Assembly: GCF_026898095.1 (NCBI RefSeq)
Contig: NZ_CP114015.1
Location: 124,001 to 188,000, forward strand
Direction: 5' to 3'
DNA length: 64,000 nucleotides
From: Arthrobacter sp. ATA002
Lineage (GTDB): Bacteria > Actinomycetota > Actinomycetes > Actinomycetales > Micrococcaceae
The notes beneath the pieces were generated by a model, which was not told the origin of the DNA, made no database searches, and saw only the letters and a program-made list of their open reading frames with translations. The position numbers and the translations under genes were made by a program. How positions within the stretch are numbered: the first letter of the stretch is position 1; each line of letters starts with the position of its first letter. Of the stretch, positions 1 through 64,000 are shown one piece after another.

Positions 1-110
1 TCCACCTTGGTTGCCCCGCTCTGGGAAAGGCTGGGAAGAATGAGCACCAGAAGGGCCAATGCCAGGACAATCCAAATGCCCGGCCCCTTGAAGAAGTTCT
101 TAGATTTCAT
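1..110 (-). CDS. ftsH: ATP-dependent zinc metalloprotease FtsH, N-terminal fragment
   Basis: Only the first 36 codons lie in the window; the gene continues beyond position 1. The translation begins MKSKNFFKGPGIWIV and runs into a hydrophobic stretch, which matches the N-terminal membrane anchor of actinobacterial FtsH. FtsH is a membrane-bound AAA+ protease that degrades misfolded membrane proteins and short-lived regulators. Its place directly downstream of hpt and tilS is the usual actinobacterial order and supports the call. The AAA and peptidase domains are not in the window, so the identification rests on the N-terminus and context. No strong ribosome binding site precedes the ATG. Confidence 0.8.
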   Translation of the reverse strand, partial: MKSKNFFKGPGIWIVLALALLVLILPSLSQSGATKV

Positions 111-271
111 TCGTCGTCAGGGCGTACGCCCCGTCCCTCCTGATCAACAACGCTGATAATGCGCGGAAATATACTTCAACTAGCTATACACCGTTACCTG
201 AAAGAACACGTCCCGAATACCCCGAAAGTTCCCTCTGGGCGTAGCACGCCGCCGTGATGTTGATCGCGGAC

Positions 272-313
272 GCAGAACCGGACGGCAGCCTGCGGGCCGC
301 CGTCCGGTTCTGC
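272..313 (-). terminator. Hairpin downstream of hpt
   Basis: A perfect 15-bp inverted repeat (272-286 with 299-313; arm GCAGAACCGGACGGC on the plus strand) lies 18 bases past the hpt stop codon. It most likely ends the tilS-hpt transcript, so ftsH would have its own promoter in 111-270. That leader shows no promoter I can name with confidence. Confidence 0.6.
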
Positions 314-330
314 CTGCGCTGATACGGGAT

Positions 331-882
331 CTACTCGTACACGTGCGGTGCCAGGGTTCCGATGAAGTCGAGGTTGCGGTAGCGCTCGGCAAAGTCCAGG
401 CCGTAGCCCACCACAAACTCATTGGGGATCTCGTAACCGACGTACTTCACGTCGATTTCCACCTTCGCGGCGGTGGGCTTGCGCAGCAGCGTGCAGATTT
501 CGACGCTGGCCGGGCCGCGGGACTGCAGGTTCGTGCGCAGCCAGGACAGGGTCAGGCCGGAGTCGATGATGTCTTCGACGATCAGCACATGCTTGCCCAG
601 GAGGTCCGTTTCCAGGTCCTTGAGGATGCGTACGACGCCGGAGGACTGGGTGCCGGAGCCGTAGGAGGACACAGCCATCCAGTCCATGGTCACGTGGCTG
701 TGCAGGGCACGGGAAAGATCGGCCATGATCATCACGGCACCCTTGAGCACGCCGACCAGCAGGATGTCCCGCCCGGCGTAGTCGCGGTCAATCTCGGCTG
801 CGAGTTCGGTGACCCGCGTTTGAATCTGTTCCTTGGTATAGAGAACGTGCTTGAGGTCTGACTGGACGTCGTGTGAATCCAC
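331..882 (-). CDS. hpt: Hypoxanthine phosphoribosyltransferase
   Basis: This purine-salvage enzyme converts hypoxanthine or guanine plus PRPP to IMP or GMP in the cytoplasm. The 183-residue length is normal for bacterial Hpt. The PRPP-binding loop is visible as VLIVEDIIDSGLT at about residues 98-110, and the active-site loop around SSYGSGTQSSG follows the expected order. It sits 36 bases downstream of tilS on the same strand and is followed by a hairpin before ftsH; tilS-hpt-ftsH is a conserved order in many bacteria. Frame and length are intact. Confidence 0.96.
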   Translation of the reverse strand: MDSHDVQSDLKHVLYTKEQIQTRVTELAAEIDRDYAGRDILLVGVLKGAVMIMADLSRALHSHVTMDWMAVSSYGSGTQSSGVVRILKDLETDLLGKHVLIVEDIIDSGLTLSWLRTNLQSRGPASVEICTLLRKPTAAKVEIDVKYVGYEIPNEFVVGYGLDFAERYRNLDFIGTLAPHVYE

Positions 883-918
883 GAATGGCTCCCGGGTGCG
901 AGATGTTGCAGCTGGATT

Positions 919-3283: not shown

Positions 3284-4791
3284 TCAGCGGCAGCCGCAGG
3301 CGGCAAGCACCGTGGCCGCCGAGTCCACGGCGGCCCGGGCCTGGGCGGTGTTCGCTTCCAGCCCGTTTGCCACAAAGGCAAAGGACAGCAGCCGCCCGTC
3401 GGCATCCGTCACGAACCCGGTGAGCGAGGTAACCGCGAACAGGGTTCCAGTTTTTCCCCGAACCACGCCGGCCGGTGACACGTCCGGTTCGCCGGCGGAC
3501 GTGTCCCCCGGTTCACCGGCGGACGTGTCCCCCGGTTCACCGGCGGAAAATCGGGTGGCTAGGGTTCCGCTCAGGCCGGCCACCGGCAGGGAATAGGGCA
3601 GCGTCCGCACATCGTTGTCCGTGGACGTCAGCGCCGCCTGCATGGTACGGGCGAGCTGCAGGGCGGAGATCCGGGTACCGGCGCCCAGGCCGGAGGCATC
3701 GGCCAGCACCAGTCCGGAAGTGTCCACGCCGAGCCGGGAAACCGCGGCCTTCACGGCCTGTGTTCCACCGTCGAAGGTCGCTTCCCTGCCCGTGGCCAGG
3801 GCACTCATCCGGGCCAGTGCCTCAGCCAGGTAGTTATCGGAGGTGAGCAGCATATGCCGCACCTGTTCGGAAACGGGCGCCGATTCCACGGCGGCCAGCT
3901 GCTCAGCCCCTCCGCTGCCGTGCCGCGTTCGATGACCGTATCGACCGTGAACCCGTTATCCACGGACGCTGTTTCGAGCGCGGCGGCGAAGGCTTCGGCG
4001 GCGGTGAGGGCGGCGTCGTCGGCCCGCAGGCCGGACGAGGCGCCCTCGGCGGCCCAGGCTGAATTGATGGCCAGCGGAAAGAGCGGTGCCATTTCCCCGG
4101 CCTCCACGTCCTCGCTGCTCCACGCCGGGGACAGCGTGTCACCGGTGAACAGCGTGTCATCGAGGCGGATGCGCACGGTTCCGCCGGTCCCGCGCTTTTC
4201 CAGGGCCGCTGCCGTCTTTTCGGCGAGGGTCTGCAGCCCGGCCCGGCCCGTAATCTGCTCCCCGTCCGACTCCCCGTCCGACTCCCCGGCAGCCAGGAGG
4301 ACGTCCCCTCCGCCCTTCAGCACGATGGTGCTGGGGGCGTTTCCGGCATAGACAGCCGTTTCAAACCGGGTATCAGCCCCGAGGTCCGAGAGGGCGGCCG
4401 CGGCCGTGAGGATCTTAAGGCTGGAGGCCGGTGTCACGGCGGTGCCGCCGTCGAGATCGTAGAGGACCTCGCCCGTCAGGGCATCGAGGACGGTCCCGTG
4501 GAACGTGCCGCTTCCGGAGACCGCCAGCTCGGCGTCCAGCAGGTCCTTCAGCGTGTCCGTGTCCGGGGCGGTGTCCGGGGCGGACTGGCCTGCGCCGGCC
4601 GGCACCGGAAAGTCTCCGCCGCTGAACGCCAGCCGTCCCGGGCCCTGCTGGTACGGGGGCACCACGACCTGGCGCTGGGGCTGCTCGCCGCGCAGCGCGG
4701 TGAGCAGCGGAGGTCCGGCGTAAAACGCCAGCGGAACAACCAGCACGGCCAGGACCAGGGTCAGCAGAAGGCCGGTAAGCACCCGAGCCAT
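3284..4791 (-). pseudogene. dacB: D-alanyl-D-alanine carboxypeptidase/endopeptidase (PBP4-type), frame broken by one missing base
   Basis: DacB is an exported penicillin-binding protein that trims or cleaves peptidoglycan cross-links. The N-terminus has a hydrophobic signal/anchor segment (residues ~3-30). The serine-acylase motifs appear in order: SxxK as SSLK in TPASSLKIL, SDN in LTSDNYLAEA, and KTG in RGKTGTL. The frame changes at the C4 run 3907-3910: upstream reading ends in a tail starting SSWPPWN, while the continuation (AEQLAAVESAPVSEQ) lies in the next frame. Adding one base restores a continuous protein of about 502 residues, so I treat this as one gene and the break as a probable sequencing error. 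It is the first gene of the leftward block and divergent from ppa. Confidence 0.88.
3486..3547 (-). repeat. 24-bp in-frame tandem repeat inside dacB
   Basis: A 24-bp unit is present about 2.6 times (3486-3509, 3510-3533, 3534-3547) with one base difference between the first two copies. It encodes repeated SAGEPGDT octapeptides placed just before the KTG active-site motif of the PBP4-type protein. The unit length keeps the frame, so copy-number change would alter only a surface loop. Confidence 0.9.
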
Positions 4792-5017
4792 CGCTTCACC
4801 GCTGCTTTCCGTAGCTGCATCCGCTGCGCGAGACAGTGAATGGGGACCAAGACATATATCTTTAAGACTAGACCGGCGCCGCAGCCCGCGCTGACGCGGA
4901 CAGTTGGGCGGCTGCCGGTGTGTTGATCAGCCTACGTTCACGGCAGTGTTTTCGTTGACGCCGCGTTCGCCAACCCGTTCTGCGGAGCCCGCCGGGCCCC
5001 GCGCAAGAGGAGTATCC
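4792..5017. promoter_or_regulatory. Divergent intergenic region dacB / ppa
   Basis: This 226-bp region separates the divergent dacB and ppa starts, so promoters for both must lie here. A Shine-Dalgarno sequence AAGAGGAG sits at 5005-5012, 5 bases before the ppa ATG. I cannot assign -35/-10 elements with confidence. Confidence 0.5.
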
Positions 5018-5693: not shown

Positions 5694-5861
5694 CTGTCGG
5701 AACGATGCGGCTTAGGCCCGCCCCCTCCCCTGCCCATCCAGTGTCGGAATGATGCGGCTTTTCCCAGTCGAGTGTCGGAGTAATGCCGCTTTGGCCGAAG
5801 AACTCCGACATCTGCGCGTCACTCGACGGGTGGGTCCGACACCTGCGCGTCACTCGACGGC
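5694..5861. repeat. Intergenic repeat cluster, GTGTCGGA family
   Basis: Three direct copies of a (GAG)TGTCGGAAxxATGCGGCTT-like element begin near 5694, 5740 and 5770. They are followed by two 25-bp copies in inverted sense (CCGACAyCTGCGCGTCACTCGACGG at 5804-5828 and 5836-5860, 32-bp period, one base different). The two arms share the core CGAGTG/CACTCG, so the region could form alternative hairpins. No credible gene lies in 5656-5936. Related elements recur at 48.7-49.1 kb. Confidence 0.85.
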
Positions 5862-7580: not shown

Positions 7581-8857
7581 CTACAGGACGGGCAGAACCT
7601 CAAGTCCCCCGAGGTAGGGGCGCAGGGCGGCCGGGACCGTGACGGAGCCGTCCGGGTTCTGGTGGTGTTCCAGGATGGCCACGAGCCAGCGGGTGGTGGC
7701 CAGTGTTCCGTTCAGGGTTGCCACGGCGCGCGTTCCTTGCCCTCGCCGTCCTGGCGTTCACGGATGTTCAGGCGGCGGGCCTGGAACGTGGTGCAGTTGG
7801 ACGTGGACGTCAGCTCCCGGTAGGCGTTCTGGGTGGGAACCCAGGCCTCACAGTCAAACTTCCGGGCCGCGGACATGCCCAGATCACCGGCTGCGGTGTC
7901 GATGACGCGGTAGGGCAGCTCCACCTTGGCCAGCATTTCCTCTTCCCAGGCCAGAAGGCGCTGGTGCTCGGCGGCGGCGTCCTCCGGCTTGGTGTAGATG
8001 AACATTTCCACCTTGTTGAACTGGTGGACGCGGATGATGCCGCGGGTGTCCTTCCCGTGCGAGCCGGCCTCGCGGCGGTAGCAGGAAGACCAGCCCGCGT
8101 ACCGGACCGGGCCGCCGTTCAGGTCCAGGATCTCATCGGCGTGGTAGCCGGCCAGCGGCACCTCGGAGGTGCCGACCAGGTACAGGTCGTCGTCGGCCAG
8201 GCGGTAGATTTCGGCGTCGTGGGCCACATCGAAGCCCGTGCCCTGCATGGTCTCGGGGCGGACCAGCGTGGGAGTGATCATCGGAACGAAACCGGCCTTC
8301 ACGGCCTGGTCCATGGCCATGTTCAGCAGCGCCAGCTCCAGCCGGGCACCAACTCCGCGCAGGAAGTAGAAACGGGAGCCGGATACCTTCGCACCGCGCT
8401 CCATGTCGATGGCGCCCAGCAGCTCGCCGATCTCCAAGTGGTCCCGGGGAGTGAACCCCTCGGCTTCGAAGTCGCGCGGCTTGCCAACCGTCTTGATAAC
8501 CTCGAAATCGTCTTCGCCGCCGGCGGGAACGCCGTCGGACACCAGGTTCGGAATCCGGCGCAGCAGCGCATCCGACTCGGCCTGGGCGGCGTCGGCTTCG
8601 GCGCCGGCTGCTTTCACGGCGCCGGCCAGTTCCTTGACCTCGGCCAGCAGGGCCTGCTTTTCATCCCCCTTGGCCTTGGCAACGCGTTTGCCGAAGGCAT
8701 TCTGCTCGGCCCTCAGGTTCTCGAAGCGGGTGCGGGAATCGCGGCGGGCAGCGTCGGCAGCAATGATCGCGTCCACCAGGGACTCGTCCGCCTGGCGGGC
8801 GCGCTGGGAGGCTCGGAATTTTTCGGGGTTTTCGCGGAGCTCATTAACATCGATCAC
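7581..8857 (-). pseudogene. serS: Seryl-tRNA synthetase, frame broken near the C-terminus (probable sequence error)
   Basis: SerRS charges tRNA-Ser and is essential. The N-terminal coiled-coil arm ([14 protein letters not shown] to about residue 110) and class II motifs are present, including motif 2 in [16 protein letters not shown]. The protein then reads through to [13 protein letters not shown] and stops early. The expected C-terminus ([15 protein letters not shown] ... LEVLPVL) follows in another frame and ends at 7581. Adding one base at the CC pair 7735-7736 restores a 425-residue protein of normal length. No second serS is visible in the window, so a true inactivation is unlikely. It is divergent from the lipid kinase and has its own terminator. 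Confidence 0.93.
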
Positions 8858-8921
8858 GCTTCAAGGGTACCCAAAACCGCGGCGGGCCCGGGCACAGACC
8901 CGGGTTAGGCTGGGAACCACT

Positions 8922-10051
8922 ATGTCCGCTTCCCAGATCTTCCTCATTTCACTGCTCGCTGCCGCCGCGGCCGCGGCCGCGGTGTGGGTGACGGTACGGC
9001 GGCGGCGGCGGCAGGCCGCGCGGCGGACCGTAGTCAAGACCCTCGCTCCCGGCCACCAAAGAGTTGCCGTGGTCATCAATCCCATTAAGGTCCAGGCACC
9101 GGCAGCCCGGACACTGCTGGCCGAAGCATGCGAGCTCGCCGGGTGGGATCCGCCCCTGATGATGGAAACGACGCCGGAGAGCCCGGGTTACGAACAGGCG
9201 CGGCGGGCCGTGCAGGCAGGGGCCGACGTCGTTATTGCCGCCGGCGGGGACGGCACCGTCCGCCAAGTGGCCCGTGCCCTGGCCAATACTCCGGCCGCCA
9301 TGGGGCTGCTGCCGCTGGGAACCGGAAACCTGCTGGCGCGGAATCTTGGCCTGCCCGTGGTGGACCTTGCGGCGGCCGTCAGCACCGCGCTGCACGGGAG
9401 GAACGGCGCATTGACATGGGCACCATGACGCAGGAAAACTCCGTCACCGGAGAAACCGGCAGCAGCGCTTTCCTGGTGATGGGGGGCATCGGACTCGATG
9501 CCGAAGTGCTGGCCGCCACCCGGGACGACTTGAAGAAACGCGTCGGATGGATGGCCTACAGCGAGGCGGGGGTGCGGCTCATGCCCGGGCGCCGGACCAA
9601 GATGACCATCTCCCTGGACGGTGAGCCCCCGCGGGTCCGCAAAGCGCGCAGCATCCTGTTCGCCAACATTGGGCGGCTACCCGCCGGGATCGACTTCATT
9701 CCCGAAGCCAGGATGGACGACGGACTCCTGGACGTGGTCGTCATGAGTCCGCGGAGCCTGGCGGGCTGGCTTTGGGTGGCGGGCAAGGTGGTCACGAAAT
9801 ATCCGAAGGACATCCCGGTCATCGACCACCGCCGCGCCCGGACCGTGGAGATCACGGTGGCGCAGCCCACCCGCACCCAGCTGGACGGCGATGTCACCGG
9901 AGCGGCCACTACCGTGCGGGTCGAGGTGGACCCGCTGGCGCTGCTGATCCGGGCGCCGGCTCCGGTGCCGCAGCGGCCCCGGCCGTTCGCCGGCAGGAAC
10001 CAGTCGGTTCCCGGCGAGCGGAACGGGGCCGTGCCGGGCACCCGCGCCTAG
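8922..10051 (+). pseudogene. Diacylglycerol/sphingosine kinase-like lipid kinase, frame broken by one missing base
   Basis: The protein has an N-terminal membrane segment (residues ~4-22) and a DAGK catalytic domain with the nucleotide-binding GGDGTVRQVA and LGTGNLLARNLG motifs. The second half (GGIGLDAEV, then an ADIDG-like beta domain) lies in another frame after the GG at 9400-9401. One added base gives HGRERRIDMG and a protein of about 376 residues. The family phosphorylates diacylglycerol or related lipids, feeding phospholipid turnover. It is divergent from serS with a 64-base gap. Its stop codon overlaps the stop of the convergent small gene at 10048. Confidence 0.87.
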
Positions 10052-19628: not shown

Positions 19629-20502
19629 CGACGGGCCTCCTGCGCCGCAGCCTCTGCCGCTGCTGTTGCCGGGGCGGATGGGCGGCCGGTGAAATGGTCC
19701 ATGGACTGGTACACCTTGAACACCCGCCCGGCCACGACGTCCCACAGCTGCTGGGGCAGCAGTCCGCGCAGGGCGCTGCCCAGGGGACAGTCCAGGGCAG
19801 CTGGAGCCGGGCTCTGCCGGCCAGCATTGCGGTCCAGGCCCGGTCCACCACGTACTCCGGTTCCATGAGCGGTGTCAGCAGCGGTCCGCGGGCGCCGGCA
19901 AACATGCCGGTCTTGATGTAGCTCGGAATGAGGGTCGTGACCTGGACATGCCCGTTGCCGGATTCGTTCAGTTCCAGCCGCAGCGAATCGCTCCAGCCAA
20001 TTACCGCCCACTTGGACGCGGTGTACACGCTCATTTTCGGCACCGACAGGGTGCCCGACGCCGACGCGACGTTCAGGATCCGCGCCGGAGTGCGGCGGGC
20101 AATCATGTGCGGCAGGAAAGCCCGCGTGACCTGCATGGGCGCGACCGCGTTGACCTGCATGACGGCGGCAATGTCCGCCTCCGGATCGTGGTCCCAGAAG
20201 TACTTGCCGCGCACGATGCCGGCATTGTTGATCAGGACGTCGGGAACGCCGATTTCCGCAGTAACCCGGCCGGCGGCGGCGGCCACTTCCGGCACGGAAC
20301 CGACGTCCAGGGCGAAGGTATGGACGGCGCTGCTGCCCCGGGCACGCAGTTCGGCGGCTGCGGCCTCCAGGGCTCCGGCGTTGAGGTCCCAGAGGACCAC
20401 GTGCGCTGCGCCGTCACGCACCGCACGCTCCGCATACAGCCGCCCCATGCCCATGGCCGCACCGGTGATGAGGACCGTCCGGCCTGAAACTGAAATGCCC
20501 AT
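19625..20502 (-). pseudogene. Short-chain dehydrogenase/reductase, frame broken near the C-terminus
   Basis: The Rossmann motif is ITGAAMGMGRLYA (near residue 12), NNAG appears in DVLINNAGIVRG, and the catalytic Tyr-Lys pair in SVYTASKWAVIG, so the core is a complete SDR. The frame then breaks at the G4 run 19783-19786. The C-terminal part (LGSALRGLLPQQLWD ... AQEARR) lies in the next frame and ends at 19625. One added base gives about 292 residues. It is coupled by ATGA overlap to the aldehyde dehydrogenase gene. Substrate unknown; a long-chain alcohol or ketone is plausible from the partner. Confidence 0.87.
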
Positions 20503-20646
20503 GCTGATCCGTCCGTTCGCAGCGGACTGCTGCGTCCGCCCTCTGTTTTGCCGGTAAAATAGTTCCGCCTGCAACGTAACACCGTGGACATCAACGCCCG
20601 GTACTATTCTGCACGAACCCTCCCCTGGTCTTTGAAAGGCACCTCC

Positions 20647-23924: not shown

Positions 23925-24059
23925 CCGTGTACTTTATCCATCGGAAAGCCCGCAGCCGCACAGCACATCCTCAACCGGCTTCCCGGGACCTACACTGGCA
24001 GCACCGGCAGCCGCTGTTCCGGCACCGGGAGCGGCGAAGCGGTGCGGAGGTACCCGGAT

Positions 24060-42351: not shown

Positions 42352-42473
42352 GGTCCCTAGTCTTACCGGGATCAGCGGCCGAATTCCACTCTTGGTCAGA
42401 CTGCTGAGCAAATTATGCCAAGGGCGTTCCTGCCACCCTCGGCTCCGGAGACCGACCTGTGTATGTTGGAAAA

Positions 42474-43951
42474 ATGAGTGAACCAGAGCGGGTTTTGGTA
42501 ACGGGCGCCACGGGCTATATCGGCGGGCGGCTGGTGCCGCTGCTGCTGCAGGACGGACACAAAGTGCGCGTCCTGGCCCGCTCCCCGAAAAGCTAAGCGA
42601 CGTGCCGTGGCACGACGACGTCGAGATCGTCCAGGGCGACCTCACGGACCGCGGCTCCGTGGCCGGTGCCATGCAGGACACGGACACCGTGTACTTCCTG
42701 GTCCATTCGATGGCCTCCGGCAAGGGGTTCGCGGCCCAGGAGGAGGACATCGCGAACATCGTGGCCCGCGCCGCTGACGAGGCCGGAGTTGAGCGGATCG
42801 TCTACCTGGGCGGCCTGCACCCCGAGGGCGAACTGTCCCCGCATATGCGTTCCCGCACCGAGGTGGGGCGGATCCTGCTCAACGGGAAGGTTCCCGCGGT
42901 GGTTTACCAGGCCGGTGTGGTCATCGGATCCGGGTCGGCGTCGTTCGAAATGATCCGGCACCTGACCGAAACCCTCCCGGTGATGCCGGCGCCGAGCTGG
43001 GTGCGCCGGAAGATCGAGCCCATCGCCGTCCGCGACGTCCTGCACTATCTGGTCCGCGCCGTCGACCTCCCGGCGGATGTGAACCGAACCTTCGACATCG
43101 GGTCCCGTGAGGTGCTGACCTACGCCGAGATCATGAACGGCTACGCCGAGGAGGCGGGACTGCCGCGGCGGCGGATCTACGCGCTGCCGCTGCCCGCGCC
43201 CCGGCTGGCGGGCATGTGGGTGGCCCTGGTGACGCCGATTCCGCGGTCCATGTCGCTGCCGCTGGTGGAGTCGCTGCAGCACGACGCCGTGTCCAAGGAA
43301 CACGACATTGACGAGTATCTGCCCGCGCCCGACGGCGGCCGCAGCGGCTACTCCGAAGCGGTCAAGCGGGCACTGGGCAAGGAAAAACGCGGCGAGGTGG
43401 AAACCACCTGGGCCGGCGCTTCACCCGCGGCGGACGAAGCGTCCTCCCCGCTGCCCAGCGACCCGGACTGGGCCGGACAGACCGTCTACGTGGACTCCCG
43501 CCAGCGCCGGTCCTCGGTGGCACCCGAGCACGTCTGGAAGGTGATCGAGGGCATCGGCGGCAAGAACGGCTGGTATTCGCTGCCCATGGCCTGGGCCATC
43601 CGCGGCGTGCTGGACAAGACCGTGGGCGGCGCCGGGCTGACCCGCGGCCGGCGCAACCCCACCACCCTGTTCACCGGTGACGTGGTGGACTGGTGGCGGG
43701 TGGAGCTGCTCGAGCGCGGCAGCCTGCTGCGGCTGCGCGCCGAAATGCGGGTGCCGGGCAAGGCCTGGCTGGAGCTGCGGGTGGATCCCGACGGCGGCGG
43801 CAGCCTCTACCGGCAGCGCGCCATTTACTTCCCCAAGGGTTTGGGCGGCAAGCTGTACTGGTGGGTGATTGCCCCGTTCCACGGACTGATTTTCCCGTCC
43901 ATGGCCAAGAACATCATCAAGAACGCCTCCAAGGTGGCCCAGGAGAGCTGA
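42474..43951 (+). pseudogene. SDR/NmrA-like oxidoreductase fused to DUF2867, frame broken near the start
   Basis: The gene begins MSEPERVLVTGATGYIGGRL, an NAD(P)-binding SDR motif, and stops early at RSPKS. The continuation in another frame (SDVPWHDDVEIVQGDLTD ...) runs to 43951. Adding one base at 42587-42590 (a G, or an A in the AAAA run) joins them into about 492 residues. The C-terminal half after residue ~330 (SVAPEHVWKVIEGIGG, GRRNPTTLFTGDVVDWWRVE) is the DUF2867 domain, often fused to such SDRs in actinobacteria. Function unknown; a lipid or ubiquinone-like substrate has been suggested for relatives only by analogy. It is convergent with the pentapeptide gene. Confidence 0.86.
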
Positions 43952-45873: not shown

Positions 45874-46565
45874 GCCGGGCTCCCGGCATGCCAGGCCCGG
45901 ACGAGGTCCGCGGCTGCCGTCTGCGGATTAGCCGCCGCGCAGATGGCCGACACCACCGCGGCACCGGATGCACCGGCGGCCCGCAGCGCCCCGATGTCCT
46001 CCCGGAGGATGCCGCCGATCGCCACAACCGGCACCGGCGCCCGTGCGGCGAACTCGGTGAATCCGGAAATCCCCAGCGGTTCCGGATGGTCCGGTTTGGT
46101 GCGGGTGGGACGGATGACCCCGGCACCGAGGTAGTCCACGGTTCCCGGCGGCAGGGCTGCGAGCACCGCCAGGTGCTCTGCCGTGTTGGCGGTCAGGCCG
46201 ACGACGGCGTCCGGGCCCACCAGGGTGCGCACCAGTTCGGCGGGAAGATCGCTTTGGCCCACGTGAACCCCGTGCACTGCCGCGCCGGCCGCCCGGGCCG
46301 CAAGGTAAATATCCACCCGGTCATCCACCAGCAGCGTGGCCCGGTTTCCGGCCGCTTCGGCAACCGCCAGGACCAGGGAGTAGAAGTCGGCGGCGGAAGC
46401 GTCCTTTTCCCGCACCTGAATGGTCTCCACGCCGCCGGCGACTGCCGCCCGCACGGTCTCGACGACGCCGCGCGGCCCGCACAGGACAGTATCCGTCACC
46501 AGGTAAATGCCGCTGCTGCGGATACGCTCCCGGGACCGGGACACATCAACGACTCCGGCCCTCAT
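45870..46565 (-). CDS. thiE: Thiamine-phosphate synthase
   Basis: ThiE joins HMP-pyrophosphate and hydroxyethylthiazole-phosphate to make thiamine phosphate. The 231-residue TIM-barrel has the phosphate-binding [13 protein letters not shown] (near residue 46), [30 protein letters not shown], and [24 protein letters not shown] (C-terminal pyrophosphate site). The gene begins at ATG 46565, overlapping thiM, and ends overlapping thiD, so all three are translationally coupled. Confidence 0.96.
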
Positions 46566-47370
46566 GCGCTCACCAGCCGCTGCTCCAGGTCCGCGCCGCT
46601 GAGGGAGGCAAGGCGGTCCAGGAAACCGGCGGCAAAGCTGCCCGGCCCGGAGCAGGCCTCCGCTGCGGGCTCCGCCGCTACTGTGTACACGGCGGTCGCC
46701 GCTGCCACGGCGGCCAGCTCACCGCCGTCGTCCGCCACCGCCAGGAACGCGGCGGTGACCGCGCCCAGTGCGCAGCCGCCGCCGGTAACCCGGGTCAGCA
46801 GCGCGTCGCCGTTGCTGACCCGCAGGGTCTGCACCCCGTTTGTAATCAGGTCGGTAGGCCCGGACACCGCCACCACGGACCCGTATTTTTCGGCCAGCAG
46901 CAATGCAGCCGGGAGGGCGTCTTCGGGGTTGTCGGTGGCGTCGACGCCGCGGCCGCCGGTCCCCAGACCGGCGAGGGCGATGACCTCCGAGGCATTCCCG
47001 CGGATCGCCGTGGGCCGCAGGGCCAGCAGTTCCGCCGCGAGCGCAGTGCGCACCGGCAGGCTGCCCACGGCCACCGGATCCAGTACCCAGGGCGTGCCGG
47101 CGTCGTTGGCTGCCCCTGCGGCCTCCAGCATGGCCGCGCGCTGTTCCGCGTGCGGGGTCCCCAGGTTGATCAGCACACCGGAGGCCAGCCGGGCGAACGG
47201 CCCTGCCTCCCCGGGATGTCGGTCATGGCCGGTGCCGCCCCCAGGGCCAGCAGCACGTTGGCCGTGAAGTTCGTGACCACGGCATTGGTCAGGCACTGCA
47301 CCAGGGGCGGTTCCGCACGCAGGCGCGCCAGGAGAGTGGAAACAGTTAACGGTGTCAGGCGAATAGTCAT
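46562..47370 (-). pseudogene. thiM: Hydroxyethylthiazole kinase, frame broken in the N-terminal third
   Basis: ThiM phosphorylates salvaged hydroxyethylthiazole. The N-terminal part has the substrate site [32 protein letters not shown], then stops making sense. The rest ([41 protein letters not shown] catalytic cysteine/phosphate region) lies in another frame. Adding one base at C4 47209-47212 ([11 protein letters not shown]) gives about 269 residues, the family norm. It starts at ATG 47370 next to the TPP riboswitch and overlaps thiE by ATGA. The first gene of the thiamine operon. Confidence 0.92.
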
Positions 47371-47371
47371 C

Positions 47372-47446
47372 CGCGACATCCCTTCGCTAGTTCGAACTAG
47401 ATCAGGTTCAACGGGTGTTATCTCAGCCGGTCGGCACCCCGTGTCA
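47372..47446 (-). ncRNA. Thiamine pyrophosphate (TPP) riboswitch
   Basis: Read on the minus strand, the conserved TPP aptamer landmarks appear in order: ACGGGGTGCC, the CTGAGA internal loop, ACCCGTTGAACCTGATC, and the closing GCGAAGGGATGTCGC. The 3' side of the closing stem ends about one base before the thiM ATG. Because AAGGGAT near 47380 is the likely ribosome binding site, ligand binding probably blocks translation start of the thiM-thiE-thiD mRNA. Confidence 0.93.
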
Positions 47447-47527: not shown

Positions 47528-48015
47528 TCAGAGCGTGGAGTGCCCGCCCAGCCGGTGGTACGTGCGGTTGTGGTAGACCAGCGGCTCGTCCGGGGCGCCC
47601 GGGCTCAGGATCTCCAGGACCTCGGCGGTGACCAGTACCGAGGAGCCCACAGGGTGCGCTGCAGAATCCGGGCACGCAGGGCACGCGGCACATCCCGCAG
47701 CAGCGGTTCCCCGGTGGGAAGCTGTTCCCAGGCCAGCGTTGAGGTGAAGCGCGCCGACCCCGGACGGGCAAAGAGGTCGGCCAAACCGGCATTCCGGGCG
47801 CCCAGGAGATGCACCACGATGGTGTCGGCCGAAGCAATAACTCCGGCTGAGCCGGCGGCGGACGCCAGCGAGAACACCAGGATGGCCGGATCGGCCGAAA
47901 CCGACGACACAGACGATGCAGTGAGGCCCACCGGTCCGGAGTCACCGGCTGCGGTAATGACGGCCACTCCCGCCGGATGGGCACGGAAAGCGTCCTTGAA
48001 ATGGTCTGTGAGCAT
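47528..48015 (-). pseudogene. Flavin reductase-like FMN-binding protein, frame broken near the C-terminus
   Basis: The protein begins MLTDHFKDAFRAHPAGVAVITA and has the FMN-binding SSVSADPAILVFSLA segment of the flavin-reductase-like family (HpaC/split-barrel). The frame breaks at C3 47646-47648 (LWAPRYW should be [17 protein letters not shown]). The true end is [16 protein letters not shown] at 47528. The restored protein has about 162 residues, the usual size. Such enzymes make reduced FMN for a monooxygenase; no partner is adjacent. It is in line with soxR 98 bases upstream and may share its transcript. Confidence 0.85.
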
Positions 48016-50131: not shown

Positions 50132-51048
50132 ATGAGAGCCATTTGGAAGGGTGCGATCGCTTTTGGACTGGTGAACGTGCCGGTCAAGGTGTACGCCGCC
50201 ACCGAAGACCACGACGTCAGCCTGCACCAGGTCCATGAAAAAGACGGCGGGCGCATCCGCTACCAGCGCCGCTGCGAGATTTGCGGTGAGGTGGTGGAGT
50301 ATAAGGACATCGCGAAGGCGTACGACGACGGCGAGCAGACCGTGGTGCTGACCGACGAGGATCTGGCTTCCCTGCCGGTGGAGAAGAGCCGGGAAATTGA
50401 TGTGGTCGAATTCGTGCCCAGCGAGCAGGTGGACCCCATCCTGTTCAACAAGACCTACTATCTGGAACCGGATTCGAAGTCCACGAAATCCTATGTGCTG
50501 CTCCGCCGGACGCTGGAGGACACCGACCGCACTGCCATCGTGCAGTTTTCGCTGCGCCAGAAGAGCCGGCTTGGCGCGCTTCGGGTCCGGGGGACGTCCT
50601 GACGCTGCAGACGCTCCTGTGGGAGGACGAGGTGCGCGAGGCGTCCTTCCCGTCCCTGGACGAGAAGGTCAGGATCAGCGTAAAGGAGCTGGAAATGTCC
50701 TCCGCCCTCGTGGAGTCCTTCAGTTCGGACTTCAATCCGGCCGAGTTCACCGATGATTACCAGGAACAGCTCAAGACCCTCATCGAAGCCAAGCTCGAGA
50801 AGGGCGAGGCGCTGGACACCGAGGAAACTTTCGGCGCCGAGGACGACGACGAGGGCGGCAAGGTCCTGGACCTGATGGAAGCGCTGCGCCGCAGCGTGGA
50901 AAAGAACCGCGGCAAAAAGTCCGGCGGTGCCAAGTCCGGCAGCCCGGGCTCGCGCTCCTCATCCGGTAAGAAGAGTGATGACGGGGAAACCACCGGCAAG
51001 AAACCTGCGGCACGCAAAACCGCCGCCAAAACGAAGAAGGGTGCGTAG
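50132..51048 (+). pseudogene. ku: Non-homologous end-joining protein Ku, frame broken mid-gene
   Basis: Prokaryotic Ku forms a ring on DNA ends and recruits LigD. The N-terminal half is clear (MRAIWKGAIAFGLVNVPVKVY, LHQVHEKDGGRI, CEICGEVVEYKDI). It stops at LRVRGTS because one base is missing in the G5 run 50589-50593. The correct continuation LRVRGDVLTLQTLLWEDEVREAS lies in the next frame and runs to 51048 with the Lys-rich basic tail (KKPAARKTAAKTKKGA), which binds DNA and supports recruitment. Restored length is about 305 residues. LigD lies 8 kb away. Confidence 0.94.
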
Positions 51049-51323: not shown

Positions 51324-51386
51324 GCGCAGCCTGTGCGGCAGGGCGCGCAGCCTGCGCGGCAGGGCGGGCAGCCTGCGCGGCAGGGC
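51324..51386. repeat. 21-bp tandem repeat, three copies
   Basis: Three near-identical 21-bp units (GCGCAGCCTGTGCGGCAGGGC at 51324-51344, then 51345-51365 and 51366-51386) lie between the hypothetical membrane protein and the DUF2630 gene. The period is a multiple of three, but no ORF with support covers them, so I treat the array as non-coding. It could fold back on itself through GCGCAGCC/GGGCNGCGC parts. Confidence 0.8.
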
Positions 51387-51711: not shown

Positions 51712-52412
51712 TCAGCCCGGCAGCAGCTGGCGCAGGAACCCGGAAAATCCCTCGGGCGTCCGCCCGTCGCGGCGTCCGGAGGTGACCACCCGGAGGGTGT
51801 CGGTGGCAATCCATGCGGTTCCGGCCGCCTTGAGCCGTGCCGCCAGGTACACGTCCTCATGGGATGCCAGCGGCGCGAATCCTCCGGCCCGGCGGTAGGC
51901 CGCAGCGCTGAATCCCATGTTGGCTCCGTGAATATGGGGGTGGCCCTCCCCAGTGAATGCAGCCGCTGCCAGGCTTCAAGTTCACCGGCGGTGAGATCGG
52001 CCGGATCGGGCACCACGGTTCCCAGCACGAAGCCGTAGCCGGCTGAAGCAAGCGCATGCTGGCGCACGAGCCAGTGGTGCGGAACCACTGTGTCGGCATC
52101 GGTGTTGGCGATCCACAGCCCGGGTTGCGGCCGCTGGGCGGAAATCCCGGCGGCGCGGGCAGCACCGACGGTGCCGAACGACCCTGACACGATGCGCAGG
52201 TCCAGTTCGGGCATCCACAGGCCCTGGATCCGGGCGGCGGTCTTTTCGGAGCCATCGGTGCAGGAATCGAGCACGACGGTCACGCTCACTTCCACCTGCT
52301 CAGCCGCGACCAGCGCCCGGACGGCCGTGCGGATGGACGACAGGGCGGCCGGGAGCAGCTCTTCTTCGTTGCGTGCTGGAAGGACGACGGCCAGGCGGTC
52401 CGGAGCGGTCAA
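51712..52412 (-). pseudogene. GT2-family glycosyltransferase, frame broken
   Basis: A family-2 glycosyltransferase with RLAVVLPARNEEELLPAAL, SVTVVLDSCTDGS and the sugar-nucleotide/metal-binding ANTDADTVVP. The frame breaks at C4 51948-51951 (LHSLGRATPIF should be LHSLGEGHPHIHGANMGFS). The acceptor-side part (ASHEDVYLAARLKAAGT) follows in the next frame to 51712. Restored length is about 233 residues. The start is uncertain: TTG 52412 lies 4 bases after the stop of the deacetylase/methyltransferase gene, while ATG 52475 would overlap it. The protein is probably soluble; the sugar donor is unknown. It is the third gene of the cluster. Confidence 0.8.
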
Positions 52413-52416
52413 CCGG

Positions 52417-53774
52417 TCACCGCGGGTCCGCTCGCGCGTCCGGCGGGGCCTCCACCGCAGTGCGGACGAGGACATCGATCCGAAAGTCCTCTTCCCTGTG
52501 CTCCGCGAACACCCGCAGGCCGGGCCGGGCCCGGAACGCACCGTGGACCTCGTCGCCGGTCAGTTCCCAGCCCTCGTTGCGGTGCCGCCAGTGGCAGAGC
52601 AGGACCACGCCGTCCTCCGTCAGCGAAGTTTCGGTGCGGGCCGCCAGTTCGCTGAGCTCGCTGTGCTGGAGGAAGTAACCGATTTCGGAGATGACCACCA
52701 AGTCGAAGCGGCCCTCGGGCCAGTCCTGCGGCACCGCTCCCCGGGCGAGCGTGACCTGGGGCGTACCGGCCAGTCGGATCCGGGCCAGGTCCAGGGCGCG
52801 GCGGCTAATGTCCGTGGCAGTCACCGCATCCGCGCGGGCGGCCAGGTCCGCAGTAAGGACACCAATGGAGCAGCCGGGTTCGAACACCGAAGCGAAATGC
52901 GGCCGCGGCAGCATCGCCATGCTAAGGGCCCGCTTGCGGTGCTCGTAGAAGCTGCTCTCGAACTCCCAGGGGTCCGGGGAGCGCCGATAGAGGTCCTCGA
53001 AAACTTCCCGGGGCGGGCGCGGACGGGTCACGGCAAAGGACTCAAAACCGCGTTCGAAATGGGCCAGCACCGTTTGGCTGAGCAGGGCTTCGTCGCCGGG
53101 TGCGTCCGAGAGCGGTTCGACCTGGCTCACGTGGGTTGCCATAGCCCGGGCCTTCGCGGCAGCAGCGGCGGGGTCGAGAGGCAGCACCGCCAGGCCGGCC
53201 GGAATGTCGGCCGGCGTTCCCCAGTGCCAGAGCCAGATCGGATACTCCAGGAGCGGTATTCCCAGCGTCCTGGCCAGCCCAGCAGCTGCCAGGCCGGCGG
53301 TGTCGTGGTCAGTGTGGCCGTCAGTCCGCCAGGGCGCGGCGAGAACGGTGTTCTCCACCGCCGGCCCGACAATGGCAGCCAGGGCGGCGTCGAGCCCGCT
53401 CCGTGACGCGGCGAGGCCGCCGTCGGGCAAATTCAGCAGATGAACGGTGGCATCGGGAGCCAGCTGTGCCACGGCCGCCGCCAGCTCCGTCCTTCGGATG
53501 CCGGCCAGTTCCCTGCGGGTGTGGGTGGGCGAGCCGGGATGGGAAGCCTCCCCTGCGGTAGCGACAATGACGTCGACGGCGGCGCCGCGGGCCGCCATGG
53601 CTGCGATCAATCCGCCCGCGCCCAGCGTTTCGTCGTCGGGATGGGCGGCCAGGACCACCAGGCGCCCGGGTTCGCCGGGAAGAGCTCTTCCAGTGCCAGC
53701 GTCCCGCAGCCCGCCAGTGCACTAATCCACGCCTCTTCGGGCATGGAGTCATCCAGGTGGCTGAAATTCACCAT
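52417..53774 (-). pseudogene. PIG-L deacetylase fused to a NodS-like SAM methyltransferase, frame broken near the start
   Basis: The N-terminal half is PIG-L: LVVLAAHPDDETLGAGGLIA with the zinc motif AHPDDE and the later AAPWRTDGHTDHD histidine pair. PIG-L proteins de-N-acetylate GlcNAc-type sugars. The C-terminal half (residues ~240-450) is a class I methyltransferase resembling NodS (VFEPGCSIGVLTADLAARAD for SAM binding, LVVISEIGYFLQHSEL). The frame breaks at C3 53665-53667; one added base joins ANPG to RLVVLAAHPDDE and the start at ATG 53774, giving about 452 residues. The upstream acyl-CoA dehydrogenase gene overlaps by 7 bases. Confidence 0.88.
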
Positions 53775-54810
53775 GGGGCCCTGTTTCCCTGCAGCAGGGA
53801 GGCGCCCAGCGCTGCATTGTCGCGTTCGGCGTGGTGCTGGCGCAGGTAAATCCGCAAATCTGCGGTCCGCCGGGCGTGCTCCTCTTCCAGCGCAAGCGGG
53901 CCCGGCCCGAGGCCGTGATCAGCCAGGACCAGGACCTCTTCCGCGGCGTCGGCCACGATGCTTCGCACTCTCCGGGCCAGCAGGGCGCCGTCGTGCCCCT
54001 TGGCCCTGCCTGCGTCCACATCACCGGCGGCGGAGTCCAGCGCGGCACGCGCCGCCTGGAGTCTCACGTCAGCCCTGCCCAGCAGCAAGTGGGCTATCTG
54101 GTCAGGTTCCCGGTCCTGCGCCGCCAAGAACATTCGGCGCGCCACGCCCACCGCTCCCCGTACCAGCAGGCGGCGACGCCGATCCCTCCCCAGGCGAAAC
54201 CGGGCCGTTCGAGGTACCAGTTGTCGTCCCCGACGGGACGGGCCGCGGCGCAGTGAAAATCCACCGGTCCGCTGTCCACCTGGGCCAGTCCGCGGCTAAC
54301 CCATGTTCCGGGCACTGCCGACACGCCGGGCTGGCGCAGGTCAACGGCGAAGGCCCGGCGCAGGCCCGGTTCGGTGTGGGCGGTAACCACGGCATGGTCG
54401 AGACTGCCGGCGAGGGAGCACCAGGGCTTGCGTCCGGACAGCTCCCAGCCGCCGGGCACCTGAGTGGCTTTGAGGACGGTGCCGGGCGCTTCCGCCGCGA
54501 ACACGCCCCATGTTCCGGAGTTGGCAGTGTCTCTGGCCTGCTCCAGGATGGCGAGGGCATCCAGATGGGGTTCGACGGCGCGGGCAGCCGTCAGGTCGGC
54601 GGCGGCGACGACGGCGAGGATGGACCACAGGCTCCGGGTGCGGCCTTCTCCGGGAAAAGGTGCGGCTGAGGCGACGGTGCCGGCCAGTTCGAGCGCCGCG
54701 GCCGCGGAGCCGCGCACCTCCGCTGCCTGCGTGGAAAGCCAGGGCAGGCCGGGCAGCGTCCCCTGCGCCCCAAAGCCCGGATTAGGTGCCGGAATAGCTG
54801 GAGTGTCCAC
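53768..54810 (-). pseudogene. Acyl-CoA dehydrogenase-like flavoprotein, frame broken near the C-terminus
   Basis: The 347-residue restored protein resembles acyl-CoA dehydrogenases (ELSGRKPWCSLA for the central beta domain, RPGFAWGGIGVAACWYG, and the C-terminal helices LLGRADVRLQAARAALDSA), but it is short and I cannot place a catalytic glutamate with certainty. The frame breaks at C4 54156-54159 (WYGERWAW should be WYGGAVGVARR). It begins at ATG 54810 and its stop overlaps the PIG-L gene by 7 bases, so it is coupled to it. In this set it may introduce or remove an unsaturation on a lipid or oxidise an amine-bearing substrate. Confidence 0.8.
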
Positions 54811-54984
54811 CGTGTCCTTACTCCGAGGATCGGTTTAGCCGACGCGCCCCAGGTGCTCTTCTAGATAATGTTGTCCCCAGTTTGCCAGCTTTCCGGAGTG
54901 GTTTCCTCTTTGCCGCCGGGCGGCGGGGTGCGGGCCGGGCCCGGGCCGAAGCCGGGCAGTAAATTACCTGGGCAGCACAGGGAA

Positions 54985-55655: not shown

Positions 55656-56452
55656 ATGGCTTTCACTCCCCGCACCGCGATCGTCACCGGCTCCGACTCC
55701 GGGATAGGCCGTTCCACGGCCGTGGCGCTGGCGGCTTCCGGAATGGACGTGGGCATCACGTGGAATACCGATGAGCAGGGCGCCAAGGAGACCGCCGAAG
55801 AAGTCCGCTCCCACGGCCAGCGGGCCTTTACCGCGCGTCTGGACACCACCGATCTGCCCGGCTGCGGACGCGTCATTGACCAACTCGTGAGGGAGCTGGG
55901 GTCCCTGGATGTGTTCGTTAACAATGCCGGCGCCGGCGACGGAAAGCCGTTTCTGGACCTGGACTACGAAACGTGGATGCAAACCCTGGACACCAACCTC
56001 AACGGCGCCTTTGTTTGCCTGCAGCATGCCGCCCGGACGATGGTTGATGCGGGACAGGAGGGCCGGCTCATCGCGGTGACCAGCGTTCATGAAACCCAGC
56101 CCGGGTGGGCTCGTCCGCCTACACGGCGTCCAAGCACGGACTGGGCGGGCTGATGAAGGTTATGGCCCTGGAACTGGGCCGGTACGGGATCACCGTGAAT
56201 TCGGTGGCACCGGGAGAAATTGCCACCCCCATGACGGACCAGCACAACGAGGACCCGCATCTGGCCGACCGCCCGGGCATTCCCCTTGGAAGGCCCGGCG
56301 ATGCGCGGGAGATTGCCGCGGTGGTGGCCTTCCTCGCGTCTCCCGCCGCCAGCTATGTCACCGGCGCTTCCTGGCCGGTCGACGGCGGGATGCTGCAAAT
56401 GGGACCACAGGGCGGTTCCCACATCACGTCAACCGACTGGCTGGAGGCCTGA
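55656..56452 (+). pseudogene. SDR-family oxidoreductase (glucose-1-dehydrogenase-like), frame broken
   Basis: The N-terminal half has AIVTGSDSGIGRSTA, FVNNAGAG (NNAG) and the IAVTSVHE catalytic serine. The C-terminal half has SSAYTASKHGLGG (Tyr-Lys). The frame breaks at C3 56100-56102 (ETQPGWARPP should read ETQPRVGSSAYTASKHG). One added base gives about 265 residues. The motif set suits glucose-1-dehydrogenase-like or 3-oxoacyl-ACP reductase-like SDRs, but the substrate is unknown. It is followed 3 bases later by the Rieske oxidoreductase, so they probably form an operon. Confidence 0.87.
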
Positions 56453-58618: not shown

Positions 58619-58801
58619 TATGTGTCCCTACGGTAGTCGGATCGTGCGTCATTCAGATGTTCACGCTACCCAACGCACCTGCGTACTTCAACCGGAAGGT
58701 AAGCTTACTTAGGTTGACGGCTGCCGGTTCCTTCCCCATCCGGGGCAGCGGCACTAAGCAGGCGTCTTTCGTCAACATATTTCGTCACTATTGGAGGAAA
58801 C

Positions 58802-62273: not shown

Positions 62274-62280
62274 TCAGCGC

Positions 62281-62438: not shown

Positions 62439-63212
62439 ATGATGGGTGGTCATCACGCAGCATCAGGCGCAGCAGCCTGGATTGCTGTCGCTTCAACCGC
62501 ACCGCACGCCCTCGGCTGGTATCCGGTGACACCGCTGGGAGTGGTCACCGGAGCCCTGCTCACCGCCGGAGCAGCCCTGCTCCCGGACCTCGACCACCAC
62601 AGCGGAACCATTGCGCATTCCCTGCCGCCGCTCACCAAGATCCTGGCCCGGATCACCGAACAGATCAGCGGCGGACACCGCCGCGGCACGCATTCCCTGC
62701 TGGGACTGGCAGTGTTTGTTGCCCTGTCCACCGCCTTGGGCAAGGTCACCGCCGTTGTCCCCTTCTTCGGCTCCGTGGCCGTGGGCGCAGGTCTGCTGTC
62801 GGTGCTGTTGATGGGCTTTGCGCTCAAAGCCCTGAAGATCGCCGGCGGTCCCGGCCGCAGCTGGCTGCTGGCCCTGGGGCTTTCGGCTTTCATTGCCATC
62901 TACGCCCCCGAAAACAACGACTGGCTTCCCGTGGCCGTCGGGCTGGGCGTCGCCGTACACATCGTCGGAGACCTGCTGACCCATCAGGGTGTCATGATCC
63001 TCTGGCCTCTTCGGATCAAGCGTCCGCGTTCCCTGGCGGGAATGCCGGTGCTCAATAAGCTGTGGCGCAGCAGCGGCTGCCTGTCCCTGCCGCTGATTGG
63101 TGCTGCCGGATCCTGGCGGGAATGGGCCCTGATGGTTCCCGTCACTGTCTATGCCATCTACGGGGTAATCCACGCAGCGTTCCTAACGCTGACCCACTGG
63201 GCCGTTGCCTAA
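62439..63212 (+). CDS. Membrane-bound metal-dependent hydrolase (YdjM/DUF457-like)
   Basis: The 257-residue protein begins MMGGHHAASGAAAWIAVAS and has the DUF457 metal motif LPDLDHHSGTIAH (near residues 47-60), then HRRGTHSLLG (near 80-90), and a later HIVGDLLTHQGV. Four or five hydrophobic segments surround these histidine-rich loops. YdjM-type proteins are inner-membrane hydrolases of unknown substrate. ATG 62439 is chosen although two ATG are adjacent. It is preceded by 165 bases that hold the gntP hairpin and a promoter region. Confidence 0.85.
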   Translation: MMGGHHAASGAAAWIAVASTAPHALGWYPVTPLGVVTGALLTAGAALLPDLDHHSGTIAHSLPPLTKILARITEQISGGHRRGTHSLLGLAVFVALSTALGKVTAVVPFFGSVAVGAGLLSVLLMGFALKALKIAGGPGRSWLLALGLSAFIAIYAPENNDWLPVAVGLGVAVHIVGDLLTHQGVMILWPLRIKRPRSLAGMPVLNKLWRSSGCLSLPLIGAAGSWREWALMVPVTVYAIYGVIHAAFLTLTHWAVA

Positions 63213-63319
63213 GGATGCTTCCGCCCGCACCGGAAATCCCCTGCCGGCGCGCTGAGCCGGGACAGGCTGATACGCCCTGTCCGCAGGTTCATGGGCCGAA
63301 GTAGTTACTATCGTGAACA

Positions 63320-63409
63320 ATGATGGCAGTTGTGGAACCAGCCCTTTTCGCGGGCAGCAGTAAGCCTCCGGTGAACTTCCGGCGGAAGCCCCAGCTGGGC
63401 GAGCACTAG
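63320..63409 (+). CDS. Possible short ORF, 29 residues
   Basis: A short ORF MMAVVEPALFAGSSKPPVNF (then RRKPQLGEH) lies between the membrane hydrolase and the glyoxalase-like gene. Upstream TAGTTACTATCG (63302-63313) could serve as a -10 region at a distance that would give a leaderless mRNA. It has no SD and no family that I know. It overlaps the VOC stop by four bases. Low confidence; listed because nothing else occupies 63213-63405. Confidence 0.25.
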   Translation: MMAVVEPALFAGSSKPPVNFRRKPQLGEH

Positions 63410-63792
63410 CCGGCTCCGTCCTGATGCAGCTGGATGTAATTTCCGCAGCCGTCGTCGAACACAGCCTGGGTACCCATCGCGTCAATGGACGGCGGGCCGG
63501 TGAAGCGGACGCCCCGGGCCTCCAACCGCTCCATCTCCGCGGCCACATCCGGCACCCCGAAAACAATGGCCGGCATGCCCAGGTCATACAGGCCGCTGCG
63601 GTAGGCCCCCGCCACGGGATGGTCGCTGGGTTCCAGCAGCAGGCCGGGGCCATCGGGGATACCGGGCGCCTGCACGATAAAGAGGTTGTAGTCCGGCATC
63701 ACCATGAGCGGCTCAAACCCCAGGGTGCCCGTGTAAAACTCGAAGGCGGCGGCCGGATCAAGGACGTGGATGCTGCTCATCTTTACGCGCAT
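63406..63792 (-). CDS. VOC-superfamily (glyoxalase/bleomycin-resistance-like) protein
   Basis: The 128-residue protein has two beta-alpha-beta-beta modules typical of VOC metalloenzymes, seen as HVLDPAAAFEFYTGTLGFEPLM and FGVPDVAAEMERLEARGVRFTG followed by FDDGCGNYIQLHQ at the C-terminus, where a metal-binding acid or Gln lies. ATG 63792 (MRVKMSSIHV) is chosen because the upstream codons do not fit. Function could be a glyoxalase, a dioxygenase or a resistance protein; it cannot be set from sequence. Confidence 0.85.
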   Translation of the reverse strand: MRVKMSSIHVLDPAAAFEFYTGTLGFEPLMVMPDYNLFIVQAPGIPDGPGLLLEPSDHPVAGAYRSGLYDLGMPAIVFGVPDVAAEMERLEARGVRFTGPPSIDAMGTQAVFDDGCGNYIQLHQDGAG

Positions 63793-63868
63793 GGGCGACA
63801 CGCTACCCCGTCCGGCAGCGGATGGCCCCGGGCTGCCGAAAAACAACTTGGTCGGCTGACTCTAACAG

Positions 63869-64000
63869 CTAGCGGCCTCCACGCGGTTTGCCGCCCTTGC
63901 GGCTGCCCCCGGATTTACCGCCGGCGCCTTTGCCGCCGGTGTTCCGTTTGCCGCCTGACCGGCCGCCCGGCTTCGTTCCTGCCTGCTCCGCGCTTCTGCT
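63869..64000 (-). CDS. C-terminal fragment, probable DEAD-box RNA helicase
   Basis: The window ends inside this gene. The visible tail is extremely Gly-, Lys-, Arg- and Ser-rich (GGKRNTGGKGAGGKSGG, ending SRKGGKPRGGR and a stop at 63869). Such RGG/GGK-like basic tails are typical of the C-terminus of DEAD-box RNA helicases in Arthrobacter and relatives. The helicase motifs are outside the window, so the assignment rests on the tail alone and another RNA-binding protein is possible. Confidence 0.5.
   Translation of the reverse strand, partial: SRSAEQAGTKPGGRSGGKRNTGGKGAGGKSGGSRKGGKPRGGR

What the first reader, a model, noticed from the sequence alone, without database searches (positions are those of the whole stretch)
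1..64000. Nineteen single-base deletions break sixteen genes, nearly all in G/C runs
Seen: dacB, serS, the lipid kinase, SDR 19.6 kb, glycerate kinase (three), aminoacyl-lipid synthase (two), PfkB kinase, ligD, SDR 42.5 kb, thiM, flavin reductase, ku, GT2, PIG-L fusion, acyl-CoA dehydrogenase and SDR 55.7 kb each regain a full family-length product by adding a single base per break. No insertion or substitution-type break is seen. The restored lengths all agree with net -1, -2 or -3. This pattern is expected from homopolymer under-calling and not from gene decay, because unlinked genes of all ages are equally hit, including essential ones.
Basis: partly seen in the sequence, partly recalled or inferred. 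Interest (0 to 1): 0.75.

Follow-up and report, generated by a model that had tools for sequence, protein, structure and literature searches.

The report
Assembly deletion errors, not pseudogenes
The many broken genes in this stretch of a soil Arthrobacter chromosome are almost certainly single-base mistakes of the genome assembly, not real gene loss, so the organism should be taken to have working copies.

Summary
Aligning proteins of five same-genus genomes to the window finds 19 one-base deletions in 16 genes. Eighteen are supported by at least 4 of 5 relatives; the thiM break by the one relative of the five that carries the gene there. The five relatives treated alike show none at 4 of 4. 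In 764 kb of this genome I count 163 such deletions. They fall on genes roughly in proportion to length and include serS, RpoD, a GyrB-type topoisomerase, Dxs and GlnA. The share of G/C runs that lost a base rises steeply with run length. The six rRNA copies of this chromosome disagree at 42 gap columns; those of four relatives at 8, 0, 0 and 0. Amendments: runs are short (none over 5 as written), loss is about three to five times likelier where the G run is followed by AG, and rRNA copies also carry insertions. Decay and programmed frameshifting fit poorly. No reads were available, so platform and the cause of the AG effect are inferred. Ordinary; some 800 to 1,000 false breaks are expected genome-wide.

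The parts
3287..4904 (-). dacB-type D-Ala-D-Ala carboxypeptidase; one -1 frame break at about 3905-3911 (upstream limit depends on the relative)
   Evidence: 5 of 5 relatives
7584..8857 (-). serS, seryl-tRNA synthetase; one -1 frame break at about 7737
   Evidence: 4 of 5 relatives at this site; full length in 28 of 28 other genomes of the genus searched, no second copy found here
8391..10039 (+). diacylglycerol-kinase-type lipid kinase; one -1 frame break at about 9400
   Evidence: 5 of 5 relatives
19649..20520 (-). short-chain dehydrogenase; one -1 frame break at about 19787
   Evidence: 4 of 5 relatives on this strand
21975..23078 (-). glycerate kinase; three -1 frame breaks at about 22212, 22457-22463 and 22597
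   Evidence: 5 of 5 relatives each
23903..26622 (+). aminoacyl-lipid (phosphatidylglycerol lysyltransferase-type) synthase; two -1 frame breaks at about 24304 and 24717-24720
   Evidence: 5 of 5 relatives each
30270..31186 (-). PfkB-family kinase; one -1 frame break at about 30543
   Evidence: 4 of 5 relatives
39779..42504 (-). ligD, DNA ligase D; one -1 frame break at about 41210
   Evidence: 4 of 5 relatives
42474..43948 (+).
   Evidence: 5 of 5 relatives
46565..47379 (-). thiM, hydroxyethylthiazole kinase; one -1 frame break at about 47216
   Evidence: 1 of 5 relatives, the only one of the five with the gene here
47531..48015 (-). flavin reductase; one -1 frame break at about 47651
   Evidence: 5 of 5 relatives
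50132..51045 (+). ku; one -1 frame break at about 50589
   Evidence: 5 of 5 relatives
51715..52412 (-). family-2 glycosyltransferase; one -1 frame break at about 51949-51955
   Evidence: 4 of 5 relatives
52420..53774 (-). PIG-L deacetylase / methyltransferase fusion; one -1 frame break at about 53668-53674
   Evidence: 4 of 5 relatives
53771..54822 (-). acyl-CoA-dehydrogenase-like protein (two Pfam matches, both below their cut-offs); one -1 frame break at about 54158
   Evidence: 4 of 5 relatives
55656..56449 (+). short-chain dehydrogenase; one -1 frame break at about 56104
   Evidence: 4 of 5 relatives

Best explanation
The 19 frame breaks are consensus errors of the assembly. When the single-contig chromosome was called, one base was dropped from short runs, mostly of G or C. 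Shown: the breaks are -1, the share of runs affected rises with run length, they fall on genes roughly in proportion to length, they are absent from separately assembled relatives, and rRNA copies of the same chromosome disagree by single bases. Inferred: the data came from error-prone long reads without effective accurate-read polishing, and the higher loss before AG is a k-mer effect of the base caller. The living organism is expected to carry intact genes.
For: Relatives: 18 window deletions at 4 or more of 5 relatives against 0 at 4 of 4 in each of five relatives treated alike. Essential genes: serS is full length in 28 of 28 other genomes of the genus searched and broken, with no second copy found, here. 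Of 151 broken ORFs in the wider sample I named ten of the most conserved by their G007 orthologues: RpoD, a GyrB-type topoisomerase, Dxs, GlnA, AcnA, pyruvate carboxylase, a Clp-type ATPase, DisA, a dGTPase and a thioredoxin; second copies of these were not sought. Genome-wide: 163 -1 events in 764 kb (159 by the two-relative rule, 4 window sites added by hand). The two-relative rule gives a mean of 0.17 deletions per 23,000 residues in 30 control tests on relatives, about 1.5 for the 210,000 residues of the sample, and about 3 with the same pair of relatives. Breaks per ORF are 464, 135, 14, 2 for 0, 1, 2, 3 against Poisson 473, 119, 20, 3; broken and intact ORFs are equally conserved, 0.882 and 0.871 identity to G007. 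Dose response: about 0.15, 1.4, 3.9 and 19% of runs of 3, 4, 5 and 6 lost a base, and 0.7, 4.4, 19 and 50% when followed by AG (the assignment of sites to runs is approximate and the last figure is 3 of 6). Non-coding control: the six rRNA copies disagree at 33 (23S) plus 9 (16S) gap columns, against 5 plus 3, 0, 0 and 0 in G001, G003, G004 and G007. Completeness estimate 94.24% against 99-100% in the 24 same-genus relatives.
Against: The run-length spectrum is not visibly truncated: 5-runs are 137 per 100 kb here against 142 and 137 in G007 and G004, 6-runs 9.4 against 9.6 and 10.6 (summed); the GGGGGAG class is the one clearly short (17.0 against 22.1 and 23.7 per 100 kb). Of 163 sites, 101 have a longest G/C run of 3 or less as written. 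rRNA copies show as many minority insertions as deletions (20 and 16 columns, counted by hand), which a pure deletion model does not predict; about four of the insertion columns lie in blocks that look like natural variation. Single-relative comparisons have real background: G007 and G004 against each other give 14 and 7 deletions and 10 and 14 insertions in the 264 kb region, where this genome gives 75 and 68 deletions and 19 and 13 insertions. No reads or platform record were available.
Confidence: 0.97

Rival explanations
1. Real gene decay: the strain has many recent frameshift pseudogenes, for instance after loss of mismatch repair.
For: Single-base losses in runs are also what a mismatch-repair-deficient strain makes (recalled, not tested). 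In one search, 21 of 615 aligned ORFs show a crude in-frame body stop; many are low-identity, and none was verified.
Against: Essential genes are broken, serS without a second copy; hits follow ORF length; broken ORFs are as conserved as intact ones, though very recent loss would not show there; rRNA copies are hit one or a few copies at a time at positions shared by 24 relative copies.
Confidence: 0.02
2. Programmed -1 ribosomal frameshifting reads through the breaks.
For: Heptamers of the X XXY YYZ type are more common near the sites than at random (35 of 163 against 9.9 expected, any frame).
Against: The excess is what G/C runs would give. In 124 ORFs with a single break the heptamers near the site fall 10 in the slippery phase and 10 and 8 in the others; upstream in the same ORFs the split is 68, 69 and 112. 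GGAG and GGGG lie on either strand relative to the gene (34 against 24 and 35 against 24, p 0.36 and 0.15). The relatives compared carry the plain frame. rRNA, which is not translated, is hit as well.
Confidence: 0.005
3. The errors mark a DNA modification that the base caller was not trained on, rather than run length alone.
For: GGGGAG-type sites are strongly over-represented (CGGGGAG 18 against 0.8 expected; runs followed by AG lose a base about three to five times as often). Modified motifs do cause consensus errors in nanopore data (PMC6591954, passages seen).
Against: No longer motif separates lost from kept G(n)AG runs (best p 8.7e-4 in 136 tests for 22 lost and 103 kept, 1.1e-2 in 136 for 14 and 238); 101 of 163 sites have no GGAG within 7 bases; run length matters in both classes.
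Confidence: 0.06

Closest known systems
Gene-fragmenting indel errors of long-read bacterial assemblies (assembly Pss508 of the Kastor paper, PMC12007338; passages seen)
   Same: Most indels are false deletions, most often after runs of 4 to 5; 1,101 frameshifted genes against 25 in a short-read assembly used for comparison.
   Different: There A/T runs led; here G/C runs lead in a genome whose window is about 67% G+C, with an excess where a G run is followed by AG. The platform here is unknown.
Methylation-motif consensus errors in nanopore assemblies (PMC6591954; passages seen)
   Same: Errors concentrate in a sequence context.
   Different: There the context was the Dcm motif; here no fixed motif was found beyond G(n)AG, and run length matters.

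Membership tests
Run-length consensus errors of long-read assemblies | Single-base indels, deletions in excess | tested here: met
   19 to 0 in the window; 163 to 22 in 764 kb, the 22 not clearly above noise
Run-length consensus errors of long-read assemblies | Frequency rises with run length | tested here: met
   both context classes
Run-length consensus errors of long-read assemblies | Not seen in separately assembled relatives | tested here: met
   0 events at 4 of 4 in five relatives; serS full length in 28 of 28
Run-length consensus errors of long-read assemblies | Also in non-coding sequence, inconsistent between repeat copies | tested here: met
   42 disagreeing gap columns among six rRNA copies; four relatives 8, 0, 0, 0
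Run-length consensus errors of long-read assemblies | Run-length distribution truncated against relatives | tested here: inconclusive
   only the GGGGGAG class clearly depleted
Run-length consensus errors of long-read assemblies | Reads show the longer run; long-read platform on record | not testable with these tools
   no reads, no assembly metadata
Genuine pseudogenisation | Spares essential single-copy genes | tested here: not met
   serS broken with no second copy found; RpoD, Dxs and others hit, copies not sought
Genuine pseudogenisation | Relaxed conservation of the hit genes | tested here: not met
   0.882 against 0.871 identity to G007; would not show for very recent loss
Programmed -1 frameshifting | Slippery heptamer in the upstream reading frame | tested here: not met
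   10 in phase, 10 and 8 out of phase
Programmed -1 frameshifting | Break site shared with relatives | tested here: not met

The most novel reading that the evidence does not exclude
The three- to five-fold higher loss of a G before AG could be the footprint of a DNA modification in G(n)AG sequence that distorts the sequencing signal, so that the error map of a public assembly would report a methyltransferase specificity.
Probability: 0.06. Interest if true: 0.3.

Novelty: not a real feature. Interest (0 to 1): 0.1.

Why it matters
Gene-content, pseudogene and metabolic statements made from this assembly would be wrong for about one gene in four (151 of 615 aligned ORFs carry a -1). Scaling 163 per 764 kb to 3.9 Mb gives about 830 deletions; the two-relative rule finds 15 of the 19 window sites, so the true figure may be nearer 1,000. 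Claims that this strain lost Ku/LigD end joining, thiazole salvage or serS should not be made from it.

Tried and rejected
Simple 'long run' model: rejected as too narrow, since most sites have runs of 3 or less as written (101 of 163) and 6-runs are not depleted overall. Coding insertions: 22 pass the two-relative rule, but control tests give 0.30 per 23,000 residues over 30 tests and 1.67 with the same pair of relatives, that is about 3 to 15 in a sample of this size, so they are not claimed. An excess of TGTACA in this genome looked like a second error signature; 18 of the 59 copies listed belong to a dispersed repeat, and the lead was set aside. A first rRNA alignment mixed orientations and is not used; one search replaces it, with 24 of the 25 relative copies found (one G004 copy of each rRNA had no locus). 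The plasmid search gave matches of 60-80% identity only and was not used. Literature: searches listed the papers cited; (Arthrobacter with complete genome sequence, nanopore, frameshift) listed three papers, none on this genome by title; (GGAG with nanopore deletions) listed 15 of 778, none on this bias by title or abstract start. PMC11927395 was seen by passages: deletions in runs, no occurrence of AGG, GGA or motif as search terms. The 21 crude in-frame body stops were not verified. No tests of second copies were made for RpoD and the other conserved genes.

Full report
What it is. The window is bases 124001-188000 of a 3.90 Mb single-contig genome. Named matches of its amidase put it in Arthrobacter: 23 of 25 named loci are labelled Arthrobacter and the best, A. 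gandavensis, is 82% identical. The genome's completeness estimate is 94.24%, while the 24 same-genus relatives have 99 or 100%.

Check of the observation. I fetched the syntenic 80 kb from five relatives (79 to 83% DNA identity) and aligned their ORFs to the window with an aligner that allows one-base frame changes. In one search, 18 of them are supported by at least 4 of 5 relatives. The thiM site has one supporting relative because only G007 of the five has an aligned block there. Applied to each of the five relatives, the same rule finds 0 events at 4 of 4; at 3 of 4 one event each in G001 and G003; at 2 of 4 the counts are 1, 0, 2, 3 and 4 in G004, G007, G019, G001 and G003. Events that were seen with one relative only, and two seen with two (51306/51312 and 5921), I set aside as ORF ends or antisense ORFs without testing each. 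A +1 at 58616-58619, seen with three relatives, lies upstream of the likely start. The 42.5 kb gene is NmrA-like plus DUF2867, and the two acyl-CoA dehydrogenase matches are below Pfam's cut-offs.

Size of the effect. With G007 and G004 as references, 764 kb of this genome (264 kb around and with the window, 500 kb at 2.5-3.0 Mb) give 163 -1 and 22 +1 events. Four of the 163 are window sites added by hand because the two-relative rule missed them; the rule finds 15 of the 19. In 30 control tests on relatives the rule gives on average 0.17 deletions and 0.30 insertions per 23,000 residues, and with the same pair of relatives 0.33 and 1.67. For the 210,010 residues of the sample that is about 1.5 to 3 deletions and 3 to 15 insertions, so the deletions stand far above noise and the insertions do not clearly. 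Per ORF the counts are 464, 135, 14 and 2 for 0, 1, 2 and 3 breaks, against 473, 119, 20 and 3 from a Poisson model by length. Highly conserved genes are hit: of ten broken genes chosen among the 25 most conserved of 151, nine were named (RpoD, a GyrB-type topoisomerase, Dxs, GlnA, AcnA, pyruvate carboxylase, DisA, a dGTPase and a Clp-type ATPase) and the tenth is a thioredoxin. serS is full length in 28 of 28 other genomes of the genus searched and broken only here.

Independent test outside coding sequence. The six 23S and six 16S copies of this chromosome were aligned with 24 copies of each from four relatives. Copies of this genome disagree with each other at 33 and 9 gap columns; for G001 the figures are 5 and 3, for G003, G004 and G007 they are 0 and 0. 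Counting by hand from that output, 16 columns have a deletion in one to three of the six copies, all 16 in runs of three or more, and 20 have an insertion in one copy; about four of the latter lie in blocks that look like natural variation between copies. Copy-specific single-base indels at positions that 24 relative copies share point to the assembly, not to biology. That insertions are as frequent as deletions in rRNA, unlike in coding sequence, I cannot explain; repeats may have been polished differently.

Where the errors fall. As written, 62 of 163 sites have a G/C run of 4 or more within 7 bases (14.9 expected) and none a run over 5. Assigning each site to its nearest longest G run, the share of runs that lost a base is 0.15, 1.4, 3.9 and 19% for runs of 3, 4, 5 and 6, and 0.7, 4.4, 19 and 50% when the run is followed by AG (the assignment is approximate and the last figure is 3 of 6). 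CGGGGAG is seen at 18 sites against 0.8 expected, and the parent class GGGGGAG is depleted across the sample, 17.0 per 100 kb against 22.1 and 23.7. No longer motif separates lost from kept runs. Run totals by length are otherwise close to the relatives', so the spectrum alone would not have shown the effect.

Rivals. Decay is disfavoured by essential genes, by equal conservation of broken and intact ORFs and by the rRNA result. Programmed frameshifting is disfavoured because the slippery heptamers near the sites show no phase preference (10 in phase, 10 and 8 out), the G-rich side falls on either strand and the relatives have the plain frame. A DNA modification as cause of the AG effect is possible but no motif supports it.

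Known background. Long-read assemblies with many false frameshift genes, mostly deletions after runs of 4 to 5, are described in PMC12007338 (passages seen); methylation-motif errors in PMC6591954 (passages seen). This case works like the first kind; whether it is one depends on the platform, which I could not see. The finding is an artefact of record quality, useful as a warning about this assembly.

Noticed in passing
window 47362-47451 (-) and about 44960-47520: TPP riboswitch upstream of thiM and two further ORFs that I did not name; of the five relatives only G007 has an aligned block at this place.
   Followed up: partly
window 48654-48899, 49003-49064, 5804-5860, 51324-51386: Short tandem repeats, among them a 41-base unit and a 31-base unit that both hold CCGAGTGT; the latter looks like a hairpin by eye.
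   Followed up: no
L078, L080-L082 (genome about 2.915-2.984 Mb), e.g. L080:4706-4890: Dispersed repeat with core CCGTTGTACAG.TAACGGG, in places at 41-base spacing; 18 of the 59 TGTACA copies listed.
   Followed up: partly
L173, L178, L183, L188, L193, L198 and 16S loci L203, L208, L213, L218, L223, L228: rRNA copies of this genome disagree at 42 gap columns and carry about as many minority insertions as deletions.
   Followed up: partly
genome 3446511-3447870 and 3518693-3520040: Two further amidase genes appear split into adjacent pieces.
   Followed up: no
L187, L192, L197, L222, L227: Relative G001 also shows a few copy-specific rRNA gaps, so its assembly may hold some errors of the same kind.
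   Followed up: no
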